Notes: generated by a model not told the origin, from the letters alone. A DNA stretch of 64,000 nt from Solirubrobacteraceae bacterium (GCA_031177685.1 JAPSGI010000002.1:62001-126000); one strand, 5' to 3'; positions 21,194 through 31,026 are shown, counted from the first letter of the stretch. Program-made: numbers and translations.

Positions 21194-22798
21194 GTGGCGA
21201 CGACCGACGATCGCTCCGCCGTCTCCGCCGACACGCTGGTGGCGCGGCCGTCGCTGCGCTCGCTGGCCGATGACCTGGCGGCCCGCCGCGAGAAGGCGCG
21301 GCTCGGGGGCGGGCCGGAGAAGATCGAGCGCCAGCACGAGCAGGGCAAGCTGACGGCGCGCGAGCGCCTGGCGCTGCTGATCGACGACGGCACCTTCACC
21401 GAGCTCGGCATCCACGGGCGCCCGCACTTCTCCCAGAAGGCGATGGAGGGCAAGGAGGCGCCCGCGGACGGCGTGGTCACCGGCTACGGGAAGGTCGACG
21501 GCCGGCTGGTGGCGGTGGCCGCCTACGACTTCACCGTGATGGCCGGGTCGATGGGCATGACCGGCGAGATGAAGATGGCGCGTCTGCGCGAGCTGGCGCT
21601 GTCCAAGCGCATCCCGCTGATCTGGCTGCTGGACTCCGCCGGCGCGCGCATCCAGGAGGCGGCGGGCTCGCTGTTCGCCGGTTCGGGCCATCTGTTCCGC
21701 GAGGAGGTCGTGATGAGCGGCGTCGTCCCGCAGGTGGCGGCGCTGATGGGCCCGTGCGCGGCGGGGACGGCGTACATCCCCGGACTGGCCGACTTCGTGC
21801 CGATGGTCAAGGGGCGCGGTTCGATGGCGCTCGCCGGCCCTCATCTGACCAAGGCGGTCACCGGCGAGGACGTCACGCAGGAGGAGCTCGGCGGCTCGCG
21901 CGTGCACACGCGCGTGTCCGGCGTGGGCGACCTGGAGGTGGACTCCGACGAGGAGTGCATCCAGGCGATCAAGGACTACCTGTCCTACTTCCCGTCGCAC
22001 TGCGAGGAGCCGCCGCCCCAGCGCGAGCCCTCCGACCCGGTGGACCGCATGGACGAGGAGCTGCTCGACGTGCTGCCCGAGTCCCCGCGCAAGCCCTACG
22101 ACATGTACGACGTGATCCGCCGCATCGTCGACGACGGCGTGTGGTTCGACCTCAAGCCGCGCTTCGCGCGCACGCTGATCACGTGCCTGGCGCGCATGGG
22201 CGGTCGCCCCGTGGGGATCGTGGCCAACCAGCCGCGCCACCTCGGCGGGATCCTGGAGAACGACTCCGCCGACAAGGCCGCGCGCTTCGTGAATCTGTGT
22301 GACGCCTACGGGATCCCGCTGCTGTTCCTGCAGGACGTGCCGGGCTTCATGGTCGGCACCAAGGTGGAGAAGGAGGGCATCATCCGCCACGGCGCCAAGA
22401 TGCTCTACGCGGTCTCGCGCGCCACCGTGCCCAAGGTGACCGTGGTGATCCGCAAGGCCTACGGCGCCGGCTACTACGTGATGTGCGGCAAGGCCTACGA
22501 GCCCGACCTGATCGTCGCCTGGCCCAGCGCGGAGATCTCCGTCATGGGCCCCGAGGGCGCGGTCAACATCATCTTCCGCAAGCAGATCGAGGCCTCCGAG
22601 GACCCCGACGCCACCCGGGCCGAGATGATCGCCGGCATCCAGAAGATCATCGACCCCTACATCGCCGCGGGCAACGCCCTCATCGACGACGTCATCGACC
22701 CCCGCGAGACCCGCCCCACCGTGATCCGCGCGCTGGAGATGGCCTCCACCAAGCGCGTCCAGCGCCCGTGGCGCAAGCACGGCGTCATGCCGGTGTGA
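21194..22798 (+). CDS. Acyl-CoA carboxylase carboxyltransferase (beta) subunit
   Basis: 534 residues, the normal length for actinobacterial AccD/PccB-type subunits. It transfers CO2 from carboxybiotin to acetyl-, propionyl- or longer acyl-CoA. Motifs: KIERQHEQGKLTARERLALLID at the N-terminus, SAGARIQEA with oxyanion glycines, GPCAAGTAYIPGL, and in the second half QDVPGFMVGTKVE, KAYGAGYYVMCGK and SAEISVMGPEGAVNIIF. The GTG start has no clear ribosome-binding site. No biotin carboxylase gene is adjacent; the free biotin carrier at 3925-4137 is a possible partner. Its last 26 bases are repeated at 29464-29489, bounding the islet that follows. Confidence 0.93.
   Translation: MATTDDRSAVSADTLVARPSLRSLADDLAARREKARLGGGPEKIERQHEQGKLTARERLALLIDDGTFTELGIHGRPHFSQKAMEGKEAPADGVVTGYGKVDGRLVAVAAYDFTVMAGSMGMTGEMKMARLRELALSKRIPLIWLLDSAGARIQEAAGSLFAGSGHLFREEVVMSGVVPQVAALMGPCAAGTAYIPGLADFVPMVKGRGSMALAGPHLTKAVTGEDVTQEELGGSRVHTRVSGVGDLEVDSDEECIQAIKDYLSYFPSHCEEPPPQREPSDPVDRMDEELLDVLPESPRKPYDMYDVIRRIVDDGVWFDLKPRFARTLITCLARMGGRPVGIVANQPRHLGGILENDSADKAARFVNLCDAYGIPLLFLQDVPGFMVGTKVEKEGIIRHGAKMLYAVSRATVPKVTVVIRKAYGAGYYVMCGKAYEPDLIVAWPSAEISVMGPEGAVNIIFRKQIEASEDPDATRAEMIAGIQKIIDPYIAAGNALIDDVIDPRETRPTVIRALEMASTKRVQRPWRKHGVMPV
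22773..22798 (+). repeat. Direct repeat copy 1: 3' end of the carboxyltransferase gene
   Basis: 26 bases with core gcaagcacggcgtcatgccg, encoding KHGVMPV-stop. It matches 29464-29489 with one mismatch, which reads KHGVMPL-stop there. Confidence 0.85.
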
Positions 22799-22872
22799 TC
22801 TGACCGAGTAATAAGCCGGCGTTACGTTTTCGTTGTCGTACGCGTTATCCCTGATGGAATGGGAACGCCGAG

Positions 22873-25800
22873 TTGACCTTGCGCGACAGCGGCCATGCCG
22901 TCACGTGCGCCGTCGCGACCGTGTTGGCGCTTGGCGCGCTGATCGTCCCTGCGGTAGCCGGTGCGCAGGAGTCGGCGGGGCCCATGGGGGCGCCGGCGCC
23001 GGCTGGCGCGAGTCCGGGCGATGGCCCGGACGCGGGGGCGATCGGGGAGGCGGCGCGTGAGGGGGAGGAGCGCCGCCGGGCGCGCCGTGAGTGGTTGGGG
23101 AGCGATGAGGCGCGCGAGGAGCGTGTGCGCTCGCGGCGGCGTCATCGCGGGATCGGCGCGGGGGAGTCGCGCGCGCTGTTGTTGGGGACGTTCGGGTGGC
23201 TGCTGGACGGTTTGTCGGGGGAGAGCGCGGGGCTGGCCCGCGACGGGCGCTTCATCGAGTTCTTCGATGACTACACGGCGCGGGTGCGTACGGAGGGGGG
23301 GCCGAAGCTGCTTCGCAGCTGGCTGCCGCTGCGTGTTACGGACGCCAACGGCTACAAGCAGCCGGTCGATCTGACGTTGCGCGAGCACGCGGGAGGATTC
23401 GGGGCGGTGATGCCGCTGGTGCCGGCGACGTTGCCGGCGCGGTTGGGTGAGCCGATCCGTTTCGGCTCGGAGGGCTTGGCGGTGCGCGTCGAGGCGGCGG
23501 CTTCGTCTGTGGCGGCGGGGCGTAGCGGTCCTTCGACGCTCTTCTATGCGAACGCAGACACGGACACGGACGTGGTGCTGGTGCCTGTGACGACGGGGAT
23601 CGAGGTGCTGTGGCAGCTGCGTAGCGAGGAGAGTCCGGAGACCTTCTCGCTGCGCTTCGATTTGCCTGAGGGCGCCGAGCTGCGCCGGTCGTCAACCGGC
23701 GCGGTTGACGTCGTGCGGGGTTCTGACACGTTGGGTTCGCTGCGTCCGCCGCAGGTGGTCGACGCGCAGGGCGAGCCGGTTGCGGCCAGCTCTGCCGTGC
23801 AGGGAGATCGCGTGGTCTTCTCGATCGCGCACCGGGGGGCTGACGTCGCCTATCCGTTGGCGCTGGATCCGGTGATGGAGGACCATCGGGCGTGGTACTG
23901 GGGCGGGGCGAGCGGGATGTGGGACTGGGGCTTCGGCGGGAACTCCGGCATCAAGATGGCGGGCTACTACAGCTGCTGGTGGGGCAATCCGTGCTTCTCG
24001 CAGAGCGGTTTCGGGCTGCACGTTCTGGCTTCTGACAACAACTACTCATACGGCGAGAACGGGTTCTTCCAGTACACGGCGCCGGGCCAGACCGGATACA
24101 TCAGCCGCGCCGAGTTCAGCAACATGGCGTTTCAGTGGGCCGGTCAGTGCTGCGCGAACGCGGCCTCCTGGGACGGGCTGTGGGACCCGTCGCGCGGCTG
24201 GGTCGGCTACCGGGACGTCAACTACCAGTACTGGTATCGCGCCGACACCTTCACGGGCGCGCCGGGAACGCGCTCCGCGTCCTTTGGGGAGGTCTTTTTG
24301 GGCAGCGGGCGGCGCACGCCGGTCACGGTCGCCTATCTGGGCAGCGTGTTGATGTATCTCGATGATCCCGAGGCGCCGTCCGTGGGGCTTGCGGGTGACA
24401 ACCGGCCCGGTGCGGGCACGGGAGGTTGGATGCGCGAGGGCGCCATCTCAATCGCCACGACGAGCTCGGACGCCGGTTTGGGACTTCGGCGCAGCGGTCT
24501 GGCGAGTTCGAGCTCGCTGCCGTCGGACGCCACGCAGCGCACGCTTGTGTGCTGGGGCTCGAAGGCGTTGCCGTGTCCGGGCACGCTCGCGGACTCCTGG
24601 AGCGTGCCGGTCACCTCGTTGCCGGAGGGCGTGAGCGCCATCAGCGCCTACGCCGAGGACGTGCTCGGCAAGCGCACCACCCGCACGCTGGCGCCGGCGC
24701 GCGTGGATCGCAACGCGCCGACGATCGCCCTGTCGGGAACGCTGTATGACCATCGTGACCGCCCGCTCGACGAAGCCGAGTCCTACGGCTTGCGTGTGCG
24801 CGCTCAGGAAGCTTCTTGTACGACCGATGGCCAGCGCTCGGGCGTCGCCAGCATCGAGATCCGCGTCGACGGAGTGCCCAAGGGCACCTATTCGCAAGCA
24901 ACCGTCGGCCGTTGCCTCTACGAAATCGACTGGACCTACCGGCCGGCCGACTACTCGCCCGGCGAGCATGCGGTCACGGTCCTGGTCACAGACCACACAG
25001 GCAACCGCCGTGTGCGCCACCTGCGCCCGCTATACGTCGCGCCCTCCACGTCAGCCGACGCCGGAGAAACAATCGACGGGCTCGCGGCCGCCGCCGGACT
25101 CGGCGACGAGGACATCGAGGCGATCAAGTCCCCGCGCCCCGAGCTTTCGCCCGAGTGGCGCGGGACGGTGTTTCCAGACAAGGGCTACTTCGGATCGGGG
25201 TTCACCCAGCCGCGCGTCGCGGTGGGCGGCGGGCGCATCTACGTGGCCGCCGGCAACGCAGGCGTCAAGAGCTTCGACCTGCGCGAGCCGTCCATGACGG
25301 CGCCCACCACCATCACCACCACCCCCGCGCCCGGAGGGATCGCCTACTACCGCGACGAGCTCTACGTCGCTCGTGAGCGCCATATCGACGTCTACAACCC
25401 AGCCAACCTGCAGGCTCCGCCGCGCCAGATCGGCGCGGCGCCCTGCGGCACAGGCACCACCTGCGACTCCACCGGCCTTGGCCTCAAGCGCCCACAAGGC
25501 CTGGACGCCGCCTGGGGCAAGCTGTTCGTCGCCGACGACGCCACCGACGCCAACGCCGACATCACACGCGTCTACGCCACCGACACCGGCATCCCGCTGG
25601 GCCTGTCCGCCAACGGCGACCCAGCGCCCAGCTTCCGCGACGTCTCCGTCGCCCCCGACCAGAACCTGTACTTCGACGGCAAGCGCGCCAGCACCTGGCT
25701 GGTCGGCGCTGGCATCCCCTGGCTGAACACCGGACCGCTGCTGGACGGTTACGAGCCCGACACGGCGCCGCCCACCAGCGCCGCGGACGCAGACTGGTGC

Positions 25801-27654
25801 GACTGTCCCACCATTCGCGGCACCGACTGGGTCTGGGGCATGAACTGGCTGCTCGCAGCCACCAACAACGGCACCCGCATCGAGGAATTCGGCCCCTCCG
25901 TCCGCAAGCGCACATGGACCCCCAAGCAGACCAACGGCACCGTCAACGACATCGTCTACCACAAGCGCGAAGAGCGTCTGGAAGCCTCAGGCAACCTCAT
26001 GCGCAGCGACTGGATCAACCACGACCAACAGCTGGTCTATATCGTCAGCGACGCCGACATCTACGTCCTCGGCTCCCAGGGCGAGCACTGGTATGAGCAG
26101 GCACGCACTTTCGCGTACCTCGAAGTTTTCGTGAATGACACAAAGGTCCCATTCTCAGTTGACGGGGTGCCGTCAGACGTCAATCGCCGCTCAACGGACC
26201 CAGCGGGCACGCTCACGCTAAATACACACGACATCAGGAGTGGCCCTGCGCACAGCCTCAAGGTAATAGCGACTCTCGAGGATGGACGTGAGTTATTTGC
26301 CGCGAATACTGACCTCCGCATCGATCACTCCGGTCCGGTCGGCAGCATGAGCAAGCTGCCTTACGCGGTGCGCGGTTCTGTGACGCTCATGGGTGAGATC
26401 CAAGACCAGCACAGCGGACCGCTTCGGTGGTCTCCCGAAGCGTCTATGAACGGGGCACCGGCGTGGAGCGAGTTGTGCCGTGTTGATCAGCCGGGTCCCT
26501 TTTCATGCGAGTGGGACACCAGAAACCTTGCCGACGGGAGTTACGCTCTGCGAGCTCGTCTGCTCGATGTTATGACCGATCAGCATGAAAACGTAGCGTG
26601 GTCGGCCGAACAGACAACTATTGTCGACAATACGCCGCCCGACTTGCACCTCACTGGAACCCTGATGGACGCTGGCACGTTCCCACTGGAGCACGGCCAG
26701 CCGGAGTCGCTCGAAGTCTCCGTGAGCGATCCCGCCTCTGGCGCTACCGAGCTGACAATCCTCGTCGACGGAGTTCCCCGAGACGGTGTGGAGACGCCGT
26801 GCCCGTCCGGTGGCTGCTCCTTGCAACGGTCATTTACGCTCTTCCCAGAGCACTATCCCGATGGTGTGCACCGGATAGAGGTCCACGGGCGCGATGGTGC
26901 CGGTAATCAGGCTGTTCGGGGCTTCGATTTCGATGTCGAAATGCCACCTCCACCTGACCCGGAGTCCGCCGAGGATGGCGATGAGGAAATGTCGAGCGCG
27001 TCCGCGGCAAACGCTGGAGCCCTTGACACGTCCTTACGGCTGGGAGTAGATCCGAATGCGGCGACGACAGAGGAATATCTGGCGTGCACGCCGGCCGACG
27101 CGCCGACCAATTTCCAGACCTACTCCCTTGGGCCGCTGTTCGAGGCCCTGCCCGTAACTGCGGTGACCCGTCAGTGCGACCTTCCCTTCCCTGGCGAAGC
27201 AACGCGCAGCAATGACGTTACTTATATCTACGGCACATGCGACTGGGTCCCAGCGTTGGACGACCCGAGCGACCCAGGCGGCTGCTTCCCACCCATTGCC
27301 GTCCAGACTATGCCCGCGTGCGAGACGAACCTTGCGTCGTACTCGGATGGCCCGGGTGTGCCCCCGGAGTACGAGGAGCTGCTCATTCGAGGTGTCCCGG
27401 CGGCCGCGTTCGAGGATGGGCTTCGCCTCGAACTGTATGCCGGCGGAGCGACCATAGTGGTATACGGTGACGATCCCGCGCAGGTCCGAAGAGCGGCCGA
27501 CGAGCTGCAAGCCGAGCCCAGCGGCGAGCCGCCGGACGCCCCTCGCAGTGGCGGCCTTCTTGCCTCTCAGCAGCTGCCCCCACCCGCGTCAGGAGCCATG
27601 CACGGCATGCTCAGCTGTACTGAACAGCTACTACTTCCGGAAGGAACTGGATGA
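22873..27654 (+). CDS. Giant secreted multidomain surface protein (1593 aa)
   Basis: A TTG start gives an N-terminal signal segment (VTCAVATVLALGALIVPAVAGA). Residues about 60-340 are a beta-rich region with DADVAYPLALDP-like text that, as I recall, resembles N-termini of RHS-type giants of related bacteria; no RHS/YD repeats follow. Residues 345-480 are Trp/Tyr/Gly-rich. Two Ig-like repeats share S/TGTL-D, ILVDGVP- and AVTVLVTDHTGN-like text at residues about 616-715 and 1255-1355. Between them, residues about 770-1060 look like an NHL-type propeller. Residues about 1413-1567 are an unnamed Cys-containing domain also present in the lipoprotein at 29491-30054. Base composition changes inside the gene near 26.09 kb, suggesting a swapped C-terminal part. 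Its stop overlaps the next start (ATGA). Confidence 0.75.
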   Translation: MTLRDSGHAVTCAVATVLALGALIVPAVAGAQESAGPMGAPAPAGASPGDGPDAGAIGEAAREGEERRRARREWLGSDEAREERVRSRRRHRGIGAGESRALLLGTFGWLLDGLSGESAGLARDGRFIEFFDDYTARVRTEGGPKLLRSWLPLRVTDANGYKQPVDLTLREHAGGFGAVMPLVPATLPARLGEPIRFGSEGLAVRVEAAASSVAAGRSGPSTLFYANADTDTDVVLVPVTTGIEVLWQLRSEESPETFSLRFDLPEGAELRRSSTGAVDVVRGSDTLGSLRPPQVVDAQGEPVAASSAVQGDRVVFSIAHRGADVAYPLALDPVMEDHRAWYWGGASGMWDWGFGGNSGIKMAGYYSCWWGNPCFSQSGFGLHVLASDNNYSYGENGFFQYTAPGQTGYISRAEFSNMAFQWAGQCCANAASWDGLWDPSRGWVGYRDVNYQYWYRADTFTGAPGTRSASFGEVFLGSGRRTPVTVAYLGSVLMYLDDPEAPSVGLAGDNRPGAGTGGWMREGAISIATTSSDAGLGLRRSGLASSSSLPSDATQRTLVCWGSKALPCPGTLADSWSVPVTSLPEGVSAISAYAEDVLGKRTTRTLAPARVDRNAPTIALSGTLYDHRDRPLDEAESYGLRVRAQEASCTTDGQRSGVASIEIRVDGVPKGTYSQATVGRCLYEIDWTYRPADYSPGEHAVTVLVTDHTGNRRVRHLRPLYVAPSTSADAGETIDGLAAAAGLGDEDIEAIKSPRPELSPEWRGTVFPDKGYFGSGFTQPRVAVGGGRIYVAAGNAGVKSFDLREPSMTAPTTITTTPAPGGIAYYRDELYVARERHIDVYNPANLQAPPRQIGAAPCGTGTTCDSTGLGLKRPQGLDAAWGKLFVADDATDANADITRVYATDTGIPLGLSANGDPAPSFRDVSVAPDQNLYFDGKRASTWLVGAGIPWLNTGPLLDGYEPDTAPPTSAADADWCDCPTIRGTDWVWGMNWLLAATNNGTRIEEFGPSVRKRTWTPKQTNGTVNDIVYHKREERLEASGNLMRSDWINHDQQLVYIVSDADIYVLGSQGEHWYEQARTFAYLEVFVNDTKVPFSVDGVPSDVNRRSTDPAGTLTLNTHDIRSGPAHSLKVIATLEDGRELFAANTDLRIDHSGPVGSMSKLPYAVRGSVTLMGEIQDQHSGPLRWSPEASMNGAPAWSELCRVDQPGPFSCEWDTRNLADGSYALRARLLDVMTDQHENVAWSAEQTTIVDNTPPDLHLTGTLMDAGTFPLEHGQPESLEVSVSDPASGATELTILVDGVPRDGVETPCPSGGCSLQRSFTLFPEHYPDGVHRIEVHGRDGAGNQAVRGFDFDVEMPPPPDPESAEDGDEEMSSASAANAGALDTSLRLGVDPNAATTEEYLACTPADAPTNFQTYSLGPLFEALPVTAVTRQCDLPFPGEATRSNDVTYIYGTCDWVPALDDPSDPGGCFPPIAVQTMPACETNLASYSDGPGVPPEYEELLIRGVPAAAFEDGLRLELYAGGATIVVYGDDPAQVRRAADELQAEPSGEPPDAPRSGGLLASQQLPPPASGAMHGMLSCTEQLLLPEGTG

Positions 27655-28325
27655 CCGTTCGCAACTGGCCTTCACTTCGCGGGGCCGTCTGTAGAGGCGG
27701 TTTGGCAAGTATTTTCATCGTGATGCTCTTTACCTTGAATGCGAATGCTCATTGGGAAAGGGCTAGGTACACCTACAACGCACCCTCGAACGGTAACAGC
27801 GGCTGCACCAGGGGCATTGACCCGATTACTGTCCTGTTCCGCGGATACACGGCTACGTTCAAGCGCGTAAAGTCGCACATCAAGTATCACAGTTGGGGCG
27901 GCAACGAGGGTGGGTCGAAGCAAGCCATCCTCGACCATGGCTTGTGCTTTACGCAGCAAGGGCAGCTCGCGAGTGGGCGAGGGACGCGGTACCATGTGCG
28001 ACTCTGGACGATGGCCCATGGAGACAACGCGGGCCGAATAGCCACTGTTGGCGACGCACATTACGAGCGCCTGACGGACTGCGGACACGCCGTGCCTGGG
28101 CGGATGGAGTACGGGGGCAGCGGCTTCGATGCAGCTCGGCGTCGCATGGTGAGACTGTTTTCAAGCGGCGTAGGCGGCGAGTTCCCGGAGATGCACCGCG
28201 AGCGCTTTCGACATCCAATCACTCACCACAACTGGGGTAACCGGCGGCCGATGTATCAGTGCAACGGGGTGCCAGCCAAGAGCAACGGCGACGTCGCGAT
28301 CATCGGGATGGACCGCCCACGCTGA
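27651..28325 (+). CDS. Secreted protein of unknown family, partner of the giant gene
   Basis: 224 residues. An N-terminal hydrophobic segment (GGLASIFIVMLFTLNANA) is a signal peptide. The mature part has many His, Trp and Tyr residues: HIKYHSWGGNEGG, RYHVRLWTMAHGDN, VGDAHYERLTDCGH and HPITHHNWGN; four cysteines could form two disulfides. Clustered histidines might bind metal or form a hydrolase site, but I do not recognise a family. Both ends overlap neighbours, by ATGA upstream and TGATG downstream, so it is translated with the giant protein and the lipoprotein. GC is markedly below the window average. Confidence 0.75.
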   Translation: MTVRNWPSLRGAVCRGGLASIFIVMLFTLNANAHWERARYTYNAPSNGNSGCTRGIDPITVLFRGYTATFKRVKSHIKYHSWGGNEGGSKQAILDHGLCFTQQGQLASGRGTRYHVRLWTMAHGDNAGRIATVGDAHYERLTDCGHAVPGRMEYGGSGFDAARRRMVRLFSSGVGGEFPEMHRERFRHPITHHNWGNRRPMYQCNGVPAKSNGDVAIIGMDRPR

Positions 28326-29437
28326 TGTCGTGCGAAAACTACGCTTTGAGTCTGCGGGAACTCGCTTTCGTCTGCTCCCTAATGGTCACGGTATTTACGG
28401 TCGCGTGCTCGAGCGACGGCCCGCAGCCGGATACAGATAGGCCGCGCGATGTCGCACAGGGTCCGCAGCCGCGGCTCGCGGTGTTCGCCGTAACCCCAGG
28501 GTATGACATCGCGACGGTTGACGCGAGTGGGCGCCGGATGAGGATTCTGACCGGCGAATCTAAGCCGGAGAGCATCATTCCGCAGCTGTTCACCCGGCTC
28601 ACTTGGTCGCCGAACGGCCGCAGGGTGGCTTTCGCCGGCGTGCGTAGGCGGACAGATCGCTCAGGCAACCGCGCGGACATCTACACGATAAGCCACGAGG
28701 GCGGAGAGTCCCACCGGGTTACGCGGCTGGGCGACGCGGTCGATCCCGCTTGGTCGCCTGATGGGCGAAGCATCGTCTTCACGCGGCTTCAGGCGCGCCC
28801 CGAAGGCGACTTGCTGGAGGTGGCGGGGTCGCTGTGGGCGATAAGCCCACGCGGCGGCGATCTGCGTCGCATTACGCCGACCGTGCGCGGGAGCACTGAC
28901 ACTGCCGGCTCGTTCACGCCCGACGGCACGCGCCTGCTGTTTGCACGTGCGACGTGCGAGCCCGTCGACGGCGACAGTTGTGGACGGCGGTCATCGGTAG
29001 TCATGATCAGCCGTGCGGACGGATCTGACGAGCGCAAGCTCGTGGAGCGGGCCGCTGACCCGGTGGTCTCGCCGAACGGCACTCGGCTCGCCTTCGTGAG
29101 CGACCGTGACGGTAACGGTGCGTTGACCTACGCCGACCGGGTGGTTCCCGCCAACGAGCTGTATGTCGCCGATCTCGACGGGACTGATCCGCGGCGCCTC
29201 ACGCGGACCGATGGGAAGAACGAGGCCGCGCCATCGTGGCTGCCGGGCGGTGCGCGCATCGCTTTTCAACGTGGAGTTGCTTTCGACAATGCGCAGGCGA
29301 CGGGTGTGTACCAGGTCAACGCGGACGGGACATGCGAGCTCGAGATCCTCTCGGGATTGCGCCGCCAGCGCTGGTACGCCAGTCCAGCATGGAGGCCCGG
29401 CGTAAGCCGGCGCGGTGAAGGGCGGCTGAGATGCTAA
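28325..29437 (+). CDS. TolB-like beta-propeller (PD40) lipoprotein
   Basis: 370 residues from the ATG at 28325, which overlaps the stop before it (TGATG). The signal segment ends VFTVACSSD; the cysteine suggests a lipoprotein, although Thr at -3 is not canonical. The rest has WD40-like PD40 repeats: LTWSPNGRRVAFAG, PAWSPDGRSIVFTR, SFTPDGTRLLFARA, VVSPNGTRLAFVSDRDGN and PSWLPGGARIAFQ. Such propellers bind partners at the cell surface. It is the last gene of the islet operon and ends 26 bases before the second accD-tail repeat. Role presumably tied to the giant protein. Confidence 0.85.
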   Translation: MSCENYALSLRELAFVCSLMVTVFTVACSSDGPQPDTDRPRDVAQGPQPRLAVFAVTPGYDIATVDASGRRMRILTGESKPESIIPQLFTRLTWSPNGRRVAFAGVRRRTDRSGNRADIYTISHEGGESHRVTRLGDAVDPAWSPDGRSIVFTRLQARPEGDLLEVAGSLWAISPRGGDLRRITPTVRGSTDTAGSFTPDGTRLLFARATCEPVDGDSCGRRSSVVMISRADGSDERKLVERAADPVVSPNGTRLAFVSDRDGNGALTYADRVVPANELYVADLDGTDPRRLTRTDGKNEAAPSWLPGGARIAFQRGVAFDNAQATGVYQVNADGTCELEILSGLRRQRWYASPAWRPGVSRRGEGRLRC

Positions 29438-29463
29438 TCGCCACGTGATTTCCACCGATGGCG

Positions 29464-29489
29464 GCAAGCACGGCGTCATGCCGTTGTGA
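29464..29489 (+). repeat. Direct repeat copy 2: remnant of an accD 3' end
   Basis: Same 20-base core as 22773-22792, then one mismatch (T for G) and TGTGA. It still reads KHGVMPL-stop, and a TCCACC string also found in the accD tail lies 10 bases upstream. It marks the right boundary of the low-GC islet. Confidence 0.8.
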
Positions 29490-29490
29490 C

Positions 29491-30054
29491 GTGAGCTCGT
29501 TCCGGATCTTGGGTGTCGCCGTCGCCGTCGCGGTGCTCTGGGGCGGCTGCGGTCCGGAGAAGATCCCGCCGCTCCAAGACGACCTCGGGCCCGCCAAGCG
29601 CTTCCGGCCGTTCACGGTATTCCACGCTGGCATGACTTTCGCCGGCCTGCCGATGTCGAGCGACGGGAGCTACGACGTTCGTGACTACCACCGCGGCGAC
29701 CCCGTCACATTCAGTTACGGACAGTGCACACCCTCGGGGGAGCACCAAAACTGCAATCCGCCGGTTGTCATCGCAAACTACCCGGTCTGCCGTTTCCCCG
29801 TGCCGAAGCCGTCTCCTCGCTCGACGAACATCATCCGCGGGGTTCGCGTCGACGTGTACTACGACTACGGGGTCTTCGATTCCGTGGAGATCCGTACCGG
29901 CAAGACCGCGGTGGTGATCCACGCCGAAGACCCGAGGGAGGCGCTGCGCATCGTCCGCCGGCTGCGTGCGGCCAACACGGACCTCGGGGTTGCGGACCGG
30001 CTCCCGCCTCCGCGCAGGGTCACCCCGAAGCTGAGCAGAGCCCTGTGCGGTTGA
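29491..30054 (+). CDS. Putative lipoprotein sharing the C-terminal domain of the giant protein
   Basis: 187 residues from a GTG at 29491, chosen because it yields a clean lipoprotein signal (SSFRILGVAVAVAVLWGGC). An ATG at 29458 would run through the accD-tail repeat. The mature domain (TFAGLPMSSDGSY, PVTFSYGQC, NPPVVIANYPVCRF, IRGVRVDVYYDYG, TAVVIHAEDPREALRIVRRLRA) aligns along its length with the end of the 1593-residue protein (VTYIYGTC, FPPIAVQTMPAC, IRGVPAAAFEDG, TIVVYGDDPAQVRRAADELQA), keeping three cysteines. Unnamed domain, probably extracytoplasmic. It could be an anchor, a decoy or an older paralog of the islet protein's tail. Confidence 0.75.
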   Translation: MSSFRILGVAVAVAVLWGGCGPEKIPPLQDDLGPAKRFRPFTVFHAGMTFAGLPMSSDGSYDVRDYHRGDPVTFSYGQCTPSGEHQNCNPPVVIANYPVCRFPVPKPSPRSTNIIRGVRVDVYYDYGVFDSVEIRTGKTAVVIHAEDPREALRIVRRLRAANTDLGVADRLPPPRRVTPKLSRALCG

Positions 30055-30085
30055 GCAGGGTGGTCCGTGCGGCGAGTAGAGTGGG

Positions 30086-30109
30086 CGGTAGCACTTCCCA
30101 CTTCCCACG
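30086..30109 (+). promoter_or_regulatory. CACTTCCYACTTCCC box upstream of the BKACE operon
   Basis: CGGTAGCACTTCCCACTTCC continues to 30109 and matches 17276-17299 at 21 of 24 positions. GTGGG (30081-30085) and CCCAC form partial symmetry. It ends 8 bases before the BKACE ATG. TAGCAC within it might also act as a -10. Confidence 0.5.
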
Positions 30110-30117
30110 GAGCCGCC

Positions 30118-31026
30118 ATGAGCCTCGACGATCCGGTCGTCATCACCTGCTCGATCTCCGGTGCGATCGCGAATCGCGAGCAGTGCCCGGCGATCCCGTA
30201 TACGCCGGAGGAGTACGCCGCGGAGGCGCGGCGGGCGGTGGACGAGGGGGCGGCGATGCTCCACATCCACGCGCGCACGCCGGATGGGACGCCGTCGTAC
30301 GAGGTCGAGGACTTCCGGGCGATCACGGCGGCAATCCTCGACGCGGTGGACGACGTGATCGTCAACTACTCCACAGGTGCGATCGGGGTCCCGCTGGAGA
30401 AGCGCATCGCCTACCTGCGCGAGCTGCGGCCCGAGATCGGCGCGCTGAACATGGGCTCGATGAACTACGCGAAGTACTCGGCGCGGCGCAAGGACTTCGT
30501 GTTCGCGACGGTGTTCGAGAACTCGTTCGAGACGATCACCACGCTGACCAAGGCGATGGGCGAGCTGGGGATCAAGCCCGAGCACGAGTGCTTCGACTCC
30601 GGCCACGTCGCCAACCTCGATCCGCTGCTGGACATGAGTCTGCTGGAGCCGCCGCTGCAGGTCTCCTGCGTGATGGGGGTGACCGGGGGCATCCGTCCCA
30701 GCGCCAAGAACCTCGCCCACATGGCCGAGCAGATCCCCGACGTGCCGCACGAGTGGGGCGTGATCGGGATCTCGCGCCGCCAGTGGGAGCTGGTGGCCGC
30801 GGCGCTGACGCTGGGCGGCAACGTCCGGGTGGGCCTGGAGGACAACTTCTACCTGCCCGACGGCGAGACCGCGCGCTCCAACGGCGACCTGATCGCCAAG
30901 GCGCGCCAGATGACGCAGGACGTGGGCCGGCGCCCCGCGACGGTGGCGGAGGCGCGCGCGATGCTGAGCCTGCCTGATCCGCGCGCCGCGCGCGCGGAGG
31001 TCTTCGGCGCGGGGGCGGCGGCGTGA
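30118..31026 (+). CDS. BKACE-family beta-keto acid cleavage enzyme (DUF849)
   Basis: 302 residues from the ATG at 30118. Zn-dependent TIM barrel that condenses a beta-keto acid with acetyl-CoA and splits it into acetoacetate and a new CoA ester. Motifs: ITCSISGAIAN, AAMLHIHARTPDGTPS (HxH zinc ligands near residues 47-49), VNYSTGAIG, NMGSMNYAKY, ECFDSGHV and a C-terminal RVGLEDNFYLPDG (catalytic acidic region). It overlaps the CoA-transferase gene by GTGA, forming a coupled operon with a MerR regulator. The exact beta-keto acid is unknown. Confidence 0.9.
   Translation: MSLDDPVVITCSISGAIANREQCPAIPYTPEEYAAEARRAVDEGAAMLHIHARTPDGTPSYEVEDFRAITAAILDAVDDVIVNYSTGAIGVPLEKRIAYLRELRPEIGALNMGSMNYAKYSARRKDFVFATVFENSFETITTLTKAMGELGIKPEHECFDSGHVANLDPLLDMSLLEPPLQVSCVMGVTGGIRPSAKNLAHMAEQIPDVPHEWGVIGISRRQWELVAAALTLGGNVRVGLEDNFYLPDGETARSNGDLIAKARQMTQDVGRRPATVAEARAMLSLPDPRAARAEVFGAGAAA

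What the first reader, a model, noticed from the sequence alone, without database searches (positions are those of the whole stretch)
27109..30054. Unnamed three-cysteine domain shared by the islet giant and the neighbouring lipoprotein
Residues about 1413-1567 of the giant protein and most of the 187-residue lipoprotein align: VTYIYGTC/VTFSYGQC, PPIAVQTMPAC/PPVVIANYPVC, IRGVPA/IRGVRV and VVYGDDPAQVRRAADELQA/VIHAEDPREALRIVRRLRA. One copy is inside the repeat-bounded islet, the other just outside. A lipoprotein bearing the same domain could be an anchor, decoy or regulator of the giant protein.
Basis: seen in the sequence. Interest (0 to 1): 0.75.

Follow-up and report, generated by a model that had tools for sequence, protein, structure and literature searches.

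The report
Unnamed exported domain with two partners
The tail of a giant secreted protein and a small neighbouring lipoprotein share a real, unnamed exported domain found across the soil actinobacterial class Thermoleophilia, but comparison with other genomes suggests that each copy works with its own neighbour rather than with the other.

Summary
The shared domain is real. The giant's tail (aa ~1400-1593) and the lipoprotein align at BLASTP E=2e-6. A profile built only from other genomes' proteins picks these two, and no others, out of 312 window ORFs (8e-15 and 3e-28). The family is in neither Pfam nor NCBIfam. It occurs in 62 of 399 sampled genomes of the class, mostly as a free lipoprotein. 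AlphaFold models of both copies rank the RseB/MucB C-terminal domain first, but weakly (Z about 7). Two cysteines are near-invariant; the third is present in 43 of 70 members.

The proposed anchor, decoy or regulator role for the giant is not supported. The giant's tail is closest to proteins encoded next to homologues of the neighbouring 224-aa protein: 9 of the 10 genomes with that family have it adjacent to the domain gene. The lipoprotein follows a PD40 beta-propeller lipoprotein, and the domain is fused to PD40 propellers in six genomes, including a third copy in this genome. The best reading is an exported docking domain with separate neighbouring partners. Binding itself is inferred. 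The lipoprotein is not really outside: a same-genus genome and eight other relatives lack the whole four-gene block.

The parts
22873..27654 (+). giant exported protein, 1593 aa: signal-peptide-like N-terminus, Ig-like domains (Big_7, Big_13, Big_3_3), a probable NHL-like propeller (about aa 770-1075, judged by eye), acidic linker, shared domain at the C-terminus
   Evidence: propeller region is a reading of the sequence, not a profile hit
27070..27651 (+). shared domain, giant's copy (aa 1400-1593); two near-invariant Cys (YGTC, CFPP) plus PAC, SC and an extra N-terminal pair (AC, RQC)
27651..28325 (+). P0004, 224-aa exported protein of an unnamed family whose gene lies next to a shared-domain gene in 9 of the 10 genomes that have it; start overlaps the giant's stop (ATGA)
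28325..29437 (+). PD40 (TolB-like) beta-propeller lipoprotein; ORF opens at 28259, ATG at 28325 overlaps P0004's stop (TGATG)
   Evidence: (PD40 E=3.6e-26)
29458..30054 (+). P0002, free lipoprotein copy of the shared domain (198 aa from ATG 29458; 187 aa from GTG 29491); lipobox-like LWGGC
   Evidence: signal peptide not tested with a predictor
29548..30051 (+). mature part of P0002 from the presumed lipidated Cys; modelled with pLDDT 81.7, pTM 0.80
22773..22803 (+). left copy of the 31-nt direct repeat: last codons and stop of the carboxylase gene
29464..29494 (+). right copy of the repeat (90% identical), over the first codons of P0002's ORF
21194..22798 (+). left flank: acyl-CoA carboxylase-like gene, next to the right flank in nine relatives
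   Evidence: gene name by sequence reading
30067..31026 (+). right flank: beta-keto acid cleavage enzyme-like gene
   Evidence: gene name by sequence reading

Best explanation
Both segments are members of one unnamed exported domain of about 130-170 residues, stabilised by disulfides, that serves as a docking or assembly module on the outer side of the cytoplasmic membrane. It occurs as a free lipoprotein, as the C-terminal module of PD40 propellers, and after Ig-like domains. I propose that each copy binds the exported protein encoded beside it: the giant's tail binds P0004, and the lipoprotein P0002 holds the PD40 propeller lipoprotein, a two-chain version of what other genomes make as one chain. 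Shown: homology, export-type sequence features, the conserved P0004 gene pair, and the PD40 fusions. Inferred: physical binding, disulfide formation, location at the cell surface, and the specific P0002-PD40 pairing.
For: Homology. Family spread: 43 of 232 genomes of the order, 62 of 399 of the class. P0004 pair: P0004 alone found one strong relative in 232 genomes (5.6e-12), directly downstream of a shared-domain gene. In 399 genomes the P0004 family is in ten, and in nine it lies next to a shared-domain gene, in both gene orders. The giant's tail is 47% identical to, and groups with, such linked members. PD40: shared domain fused behind a PD40 propeller in G000 itself (third copy), G223, G151, G166, G154 and G442. 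The window's PD40 protein matches the propeller of the G442 fusion at 41% over 304 aa (7e-58), ending just before the fused domain begins. The first three genes overlap by 4 and 1 nt and P0002's first ATG follows 20 nt after the third. Predicted fold.
Against: No binding was measured or modelled. The best relative of the window's PD40 protein (G357, 47%) has no shared domain, and only 2 of 7 close relatives do, so the P0002-PD40 pairing is less secure than the P0004 pairing. Most free lipoproteins of genus g18 have neither partner next to them and lie instead near a response regulator and histidine kinase. Fold matches are weak: Z about 7, no significant Foldseek E-value.
Confidence: 0.5

Rival explanations
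1. One reading: P0002 is an anchor, decoy or regulator of the giant protein through their shared domain (homotypic contact or competition for the same ligand).
For: Same domain, same four-gene block absent as a whole from nine relatives, same predicted fold.
Against: The copies are 25% identical and appear to belong to different subfamilies. The lipoprotein family is common without any giant. Conserved neighbours differ for the two copies.
Confidence: 0.13
2. The domain is an extracytoplasmic ligand- or lipid-sensing module, RseB/MucB-like in mode of action, passing a signal to membrane regulators.
For: Both models rank the RseB/MucB C-terminal domain first (Z 6.8 and 7.2). In genera g17, g18 and G003 the free lipoprotein lies beside an OmpR-type regulator and a HAMP histidine kinase. 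MucB is known to respond to lipids (PMC7400510).
Against: Z under 8 may mean only a common arrangement. No two-component genes were seen in the window's block. RseB's N-terminal domain is absent: the mature protein is only 168 aa.
Confidence: 0.22
3. Effector-immunity pair: the giant is a secreted effector and P0002 its lipoprotein antidote (the fold list includes the immunity protein Tsi3).
For: Tsi3 is among the top structural matches (Z 6.5 and 6.6).
Against: The giant's C-terminus is the shared domain itself, not an enzyme. No effector domain was found by Pfam or NCBIfam. The many other loci with the lipoprotein that were read show no such giant beside it.
Confidence: 0.04
4. The similarity is chance or compositional.
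For: Pairwise identity is only 25% with several gaps.
Against: Shuffle z=11.7; independent family profile hits only these two ORFs; separate searches converge on one family.
Confidence: 0.01

Closest known systems
RseB/MucB C-terminal domain (E. coli, Pseudomonas)
   Same: Best structural match of both models: Z 6.8 (92 residues, 3.4 A) and 7.2 (94 residues, 3.6 A); exported; some family members lie next to signalling genes
   Different: No detectable sequence similarity in the PDB-sequence search; the N-terminal LolA-like domain is missing; Z is in the range that may be only a common arrangement
Mog1p/PsbP-like beta-sandwich proteins (PsbP, LpqN, Apa, Tsi3)
   Same: Recurrent in both structure lists at Z 4-6.6; LpqN and Apa are exported actinobacterial proteins
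   Different: 4-13% identity; no sequence-profile match; the conserved YGxC...CxxP cysteine pair is this family's own
PD40 (TolB-like) beta-propeller lipoproteins
   Same: The shared domain is fused behind PD40 propellers in six genomes, and the window has a PD40 lipoprotein gene 20 nt upstream of P0002
   Different: Ordinary TolB ends with the propeller and works in the Tol-Pal system; no Tol-Pal genes were seen here, and the C-terminal domain is not part of TolB

Membership tests
the unnamed domain family itself | profile match with window sequences left out of the model | tested here: met
   P0002 3e-28, giant tail 8e-15, no other of 312 window ORFs
the unnamed domain family itself | cysteine pair YGxC ... 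CxxP, then RGV, then a C-terminal LPxP | tested here: met
   alignments; Cys 69/71 and 70/70 in 72 rows
P0004-linked subfamily (giant's tail) | P0004-family gene directly adjacent | tested here: met
   met by the giant's tail (4-nt overlap); P0002 is separated from P0004 by the PD40 gene
RseB/MucB | two domains, LolA-like N-terminal plus small C-terminal | tested here: not met
   mature P0002 is 168 aa and is modelled as a single domain that matches RseB residues 218-316 only
RseB/MucB | binds an anti-sigma factor and is released by lipid | not testable with these tools
   needs biochemistry
Mog1p/PsbP-like fold | same fold by structure comparison | tested here: inconclusive
   Z 4-6.6 for PsbP, LpqN, Apa, Tsi3; Foldseek E not significant
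bacterial lipoprotein (P0002) | signal peptide with lipobox Cys | tested here: inconclusive
   hydrophobic stretch ending LWGGC; Cys at this column in 46 of 60 rows; no signal-peptide predictor available
Pfam or NCBIfam family | match to any curated model over the shared domain | tested here: not met
   none for P0002 nor over giant aa 1400-1593; across 21 members only weak HTH matches

The most novel reading that the evidence does not exclude
The domain and the P0004 family form a previously undescribed two-protein module of the Thermoleophilia cell envelope. The domain serves as an interchangeable tail that attaches different exported machines (Ig giants, PD40 propellers, glycosidase-linked P0004 proteins) to the same kind of partner or surface.
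Probability: 0.35. Interest if true: 0.6.

Novelty: new variant of a known kind. Interest (0 to 1): 0.42.

Why it matters
Thermoleophilia are abundant in soil but largely uncultivated, and their large secreted proteins are mostly unannotated. A recognised domain with a conserved partner gene gives a handle on how these proteins are assembled at the cell surface, and a testable pairing (giant tail with P0004, P0002 with PD40). It also corrects a tempting inference: two neighbours sharing a domain need not be partners of each other.

Tried and rejected
Single-sequence search of genome contigs with P0002 found nothing; an alignment of g18 members worked. Profile searches of the domain and of the P0004 family against PDB sequences found nothing credible; P0001 found nothing at 0.01. 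Foldseek alone gave no significant match for either model, so fold statements rest on the VIA-align second look and stay weak. The two models share one alignment, so their agreement is not independent evidence. Whole-giant and half-giant searches of related genomes failed twice on the server, so the spread of the giant's N-terminal parts is untested. The idea that the two window copies are a recent duplication was tested: disfavoured (31.8 log-likelihood units) but not rejected (p=0.076). A literature search for this combination (Thermoleophilia, lipoprotein, beta-propeller) returned no paper. Gene names of the flanks and the NHL-like propeller inside the giant are readings of the sequence, not profile hits.

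Full report
What was claimed. The finding says that residues about 1413-1567 of a giant protein and most of a nearby lipoprotein share an unnamed three-cysteine domain, and that the lipoprotein could be an anchor, decoy or regulator of the giant.

The similarity is real. BLASTP of the two full proteins gives E=2e-6, and the Smith-Waterman score lies 11.7 standard deviations above shuffles. Each segment, searched alone in 146 genomes of the same family, finds the same set of small lipoproteins. The cleanest test leaves both window proteins out: a profile from other genomes only, run on 312 window ORFs, returns exactly two, P0002 at 3e-28 and the giant's tail at 8e-15.

What the domain is. It matches no Pfam or NCBIfam model. 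It is present in 43 of 232 genomes of the order and 62 of 399 genomes sampled from the class. The first two cysteines are near-invariant (69/71, 70/70), the third is in 43/70, so 'three-cysteine' describes only part of the family. AlphaFold models of P0002 (pLDDT 81.7, pTM 0.80) and the giant's tail (74.1, 0.71) both place the RseB/MucB C-terminal domain first, with Tsi3 and PsbP/LpqN/Apa-like proteins below. Z is about 7 and Foldseek E-values are not significant, so the fold assignment is a lead. Published work describes Tsi3 itself as resembling Mog1p and PsbP in topology (PMC3792639).

Partner of the giant's tail. The gene after the giant, P0004, overlaps it by four bases. P0004 has no Pfam match. 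Searched alone in 232 genomes it finds one strong relative, in G146 (5.6e-12), and that gene lies directly downstream of a shared-domain gene. In G167 a gene coding for Ig-like plus shared domain overlaps a gene whose N-terminus is P0004-like and whose C-terminus is a GH5/39-type glycosidase. In six more distant genomes of the class a P0004-family gene lies directly upstream of the shared-domain gene; in one of these, G363, the P0004-family gene is interrupted by stops. A search of 399 genomes with the P0004 family finds it in ten, nine of them with this adjacency; the tenth, G171, has it fused between Ig-like and glycosidase parts on short contigs. The query alignment was built from eight of these nine, and only eight candidates per genome were scored, so unlinked distant copies could have been missed. 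In the tree the giant's tail groups with these linked members, closest to G167 at 47% identity, with moderate support.

Partner of the lipoprotein. The gene 20 bases upstream of P0002's first ATG is a PD40 propeller lipoprotein. The shared domain is fused behind such propellers in six genomes: this one (third copy, G000 contig 16), G223, G151, G166, G154 and G442 (PD40 confirmed by Pfam for G000, G442 and a G151 protein). The window's PD40 protein aligns with the G442 propeller at 41% over 304 aa, ending about 22 residues before the fused domain starts. This is a fusion argument for pairing PD40 with the domain. It is weaker than the P0004 case, because the closest relative of the window's PD40 protein lacks the domain and only two of seven close relatives have it. 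P0002 sits in the part of the tree that holds most PD40 fusions (85/88 support).

The islet. The left repeat is the end of the carboxylase gene, and the right repeat overlaps the first codons of P0002's ORF. In the same-genus genome G001 and eight more distant relatives the two flanking genes are neighbours, with at most about 530 bases between them and none of the four genes. All four genes also have lower third-position GC (0.72-0.83) than most neighbours. So P0002 was probably gained with, or next to, the giant; being outside the repeats does not make it native.

Mechanism. The best-supported reading is an exported docking module, with the giant's tail serving P0004 and P0002 serving the PD40 propeller. 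Binding, disulfides and surface location are inferred. A sensing role is a serious rival, because in three lineages the free lipoprotein lies beside a response regulator and HAMP histidine kinase and the best structural match is a lipid-responsive regulator domain (PMC7400510).

Verdict. Observation confirmed; interpretation partly supported. A new, unnamed domain family with a conserved partner gene, of moderate interest.

Noticed in passing
L207:5634-7205, L161:8298-8948, L157:1905-2606, L156:588-1211, L159:8361-9134: Several exported members carry a C-terminal tail that looks like a helix-turn-helix (e.g. VDAVHRRLHVSRSTVRGRLRLA), odd for an extracytoplasmic protein. Pfam HTH models match three of five tails, all below their cut-offs (best HTH_1 5e-4, HTH_30 5e-3).
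   Followed up: partly
L160:8490-10241, L260, L261: The P0004-like domain is fused in front of GH5/39-type glycosidases in G167 and G171, hinting at a role in extracellular polysaccharide work.
   Followed up: partly
L081:9944-12789, L153:3383-8289, L074:6604-10734: In genera g17, g18 and in G003 the free lipoprotein gene lies beside an OmpR-type response regulator and a HAMP histidine kinase.
   Followed up: partly
window 22798-30067; L143:559-1023; L144:3535-4028; L147:3070-3584: The carboxylase-to-cleavage-enzyme junction holds different small inserts in different relatives; the one in L144 is edged by inverted GTGACTG repeats.
   Followed up: no
L153:8296-10389: A GH2-type glycosidase gene lies directly upstream of the free lipoprotein in G003.
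   Followed up: no
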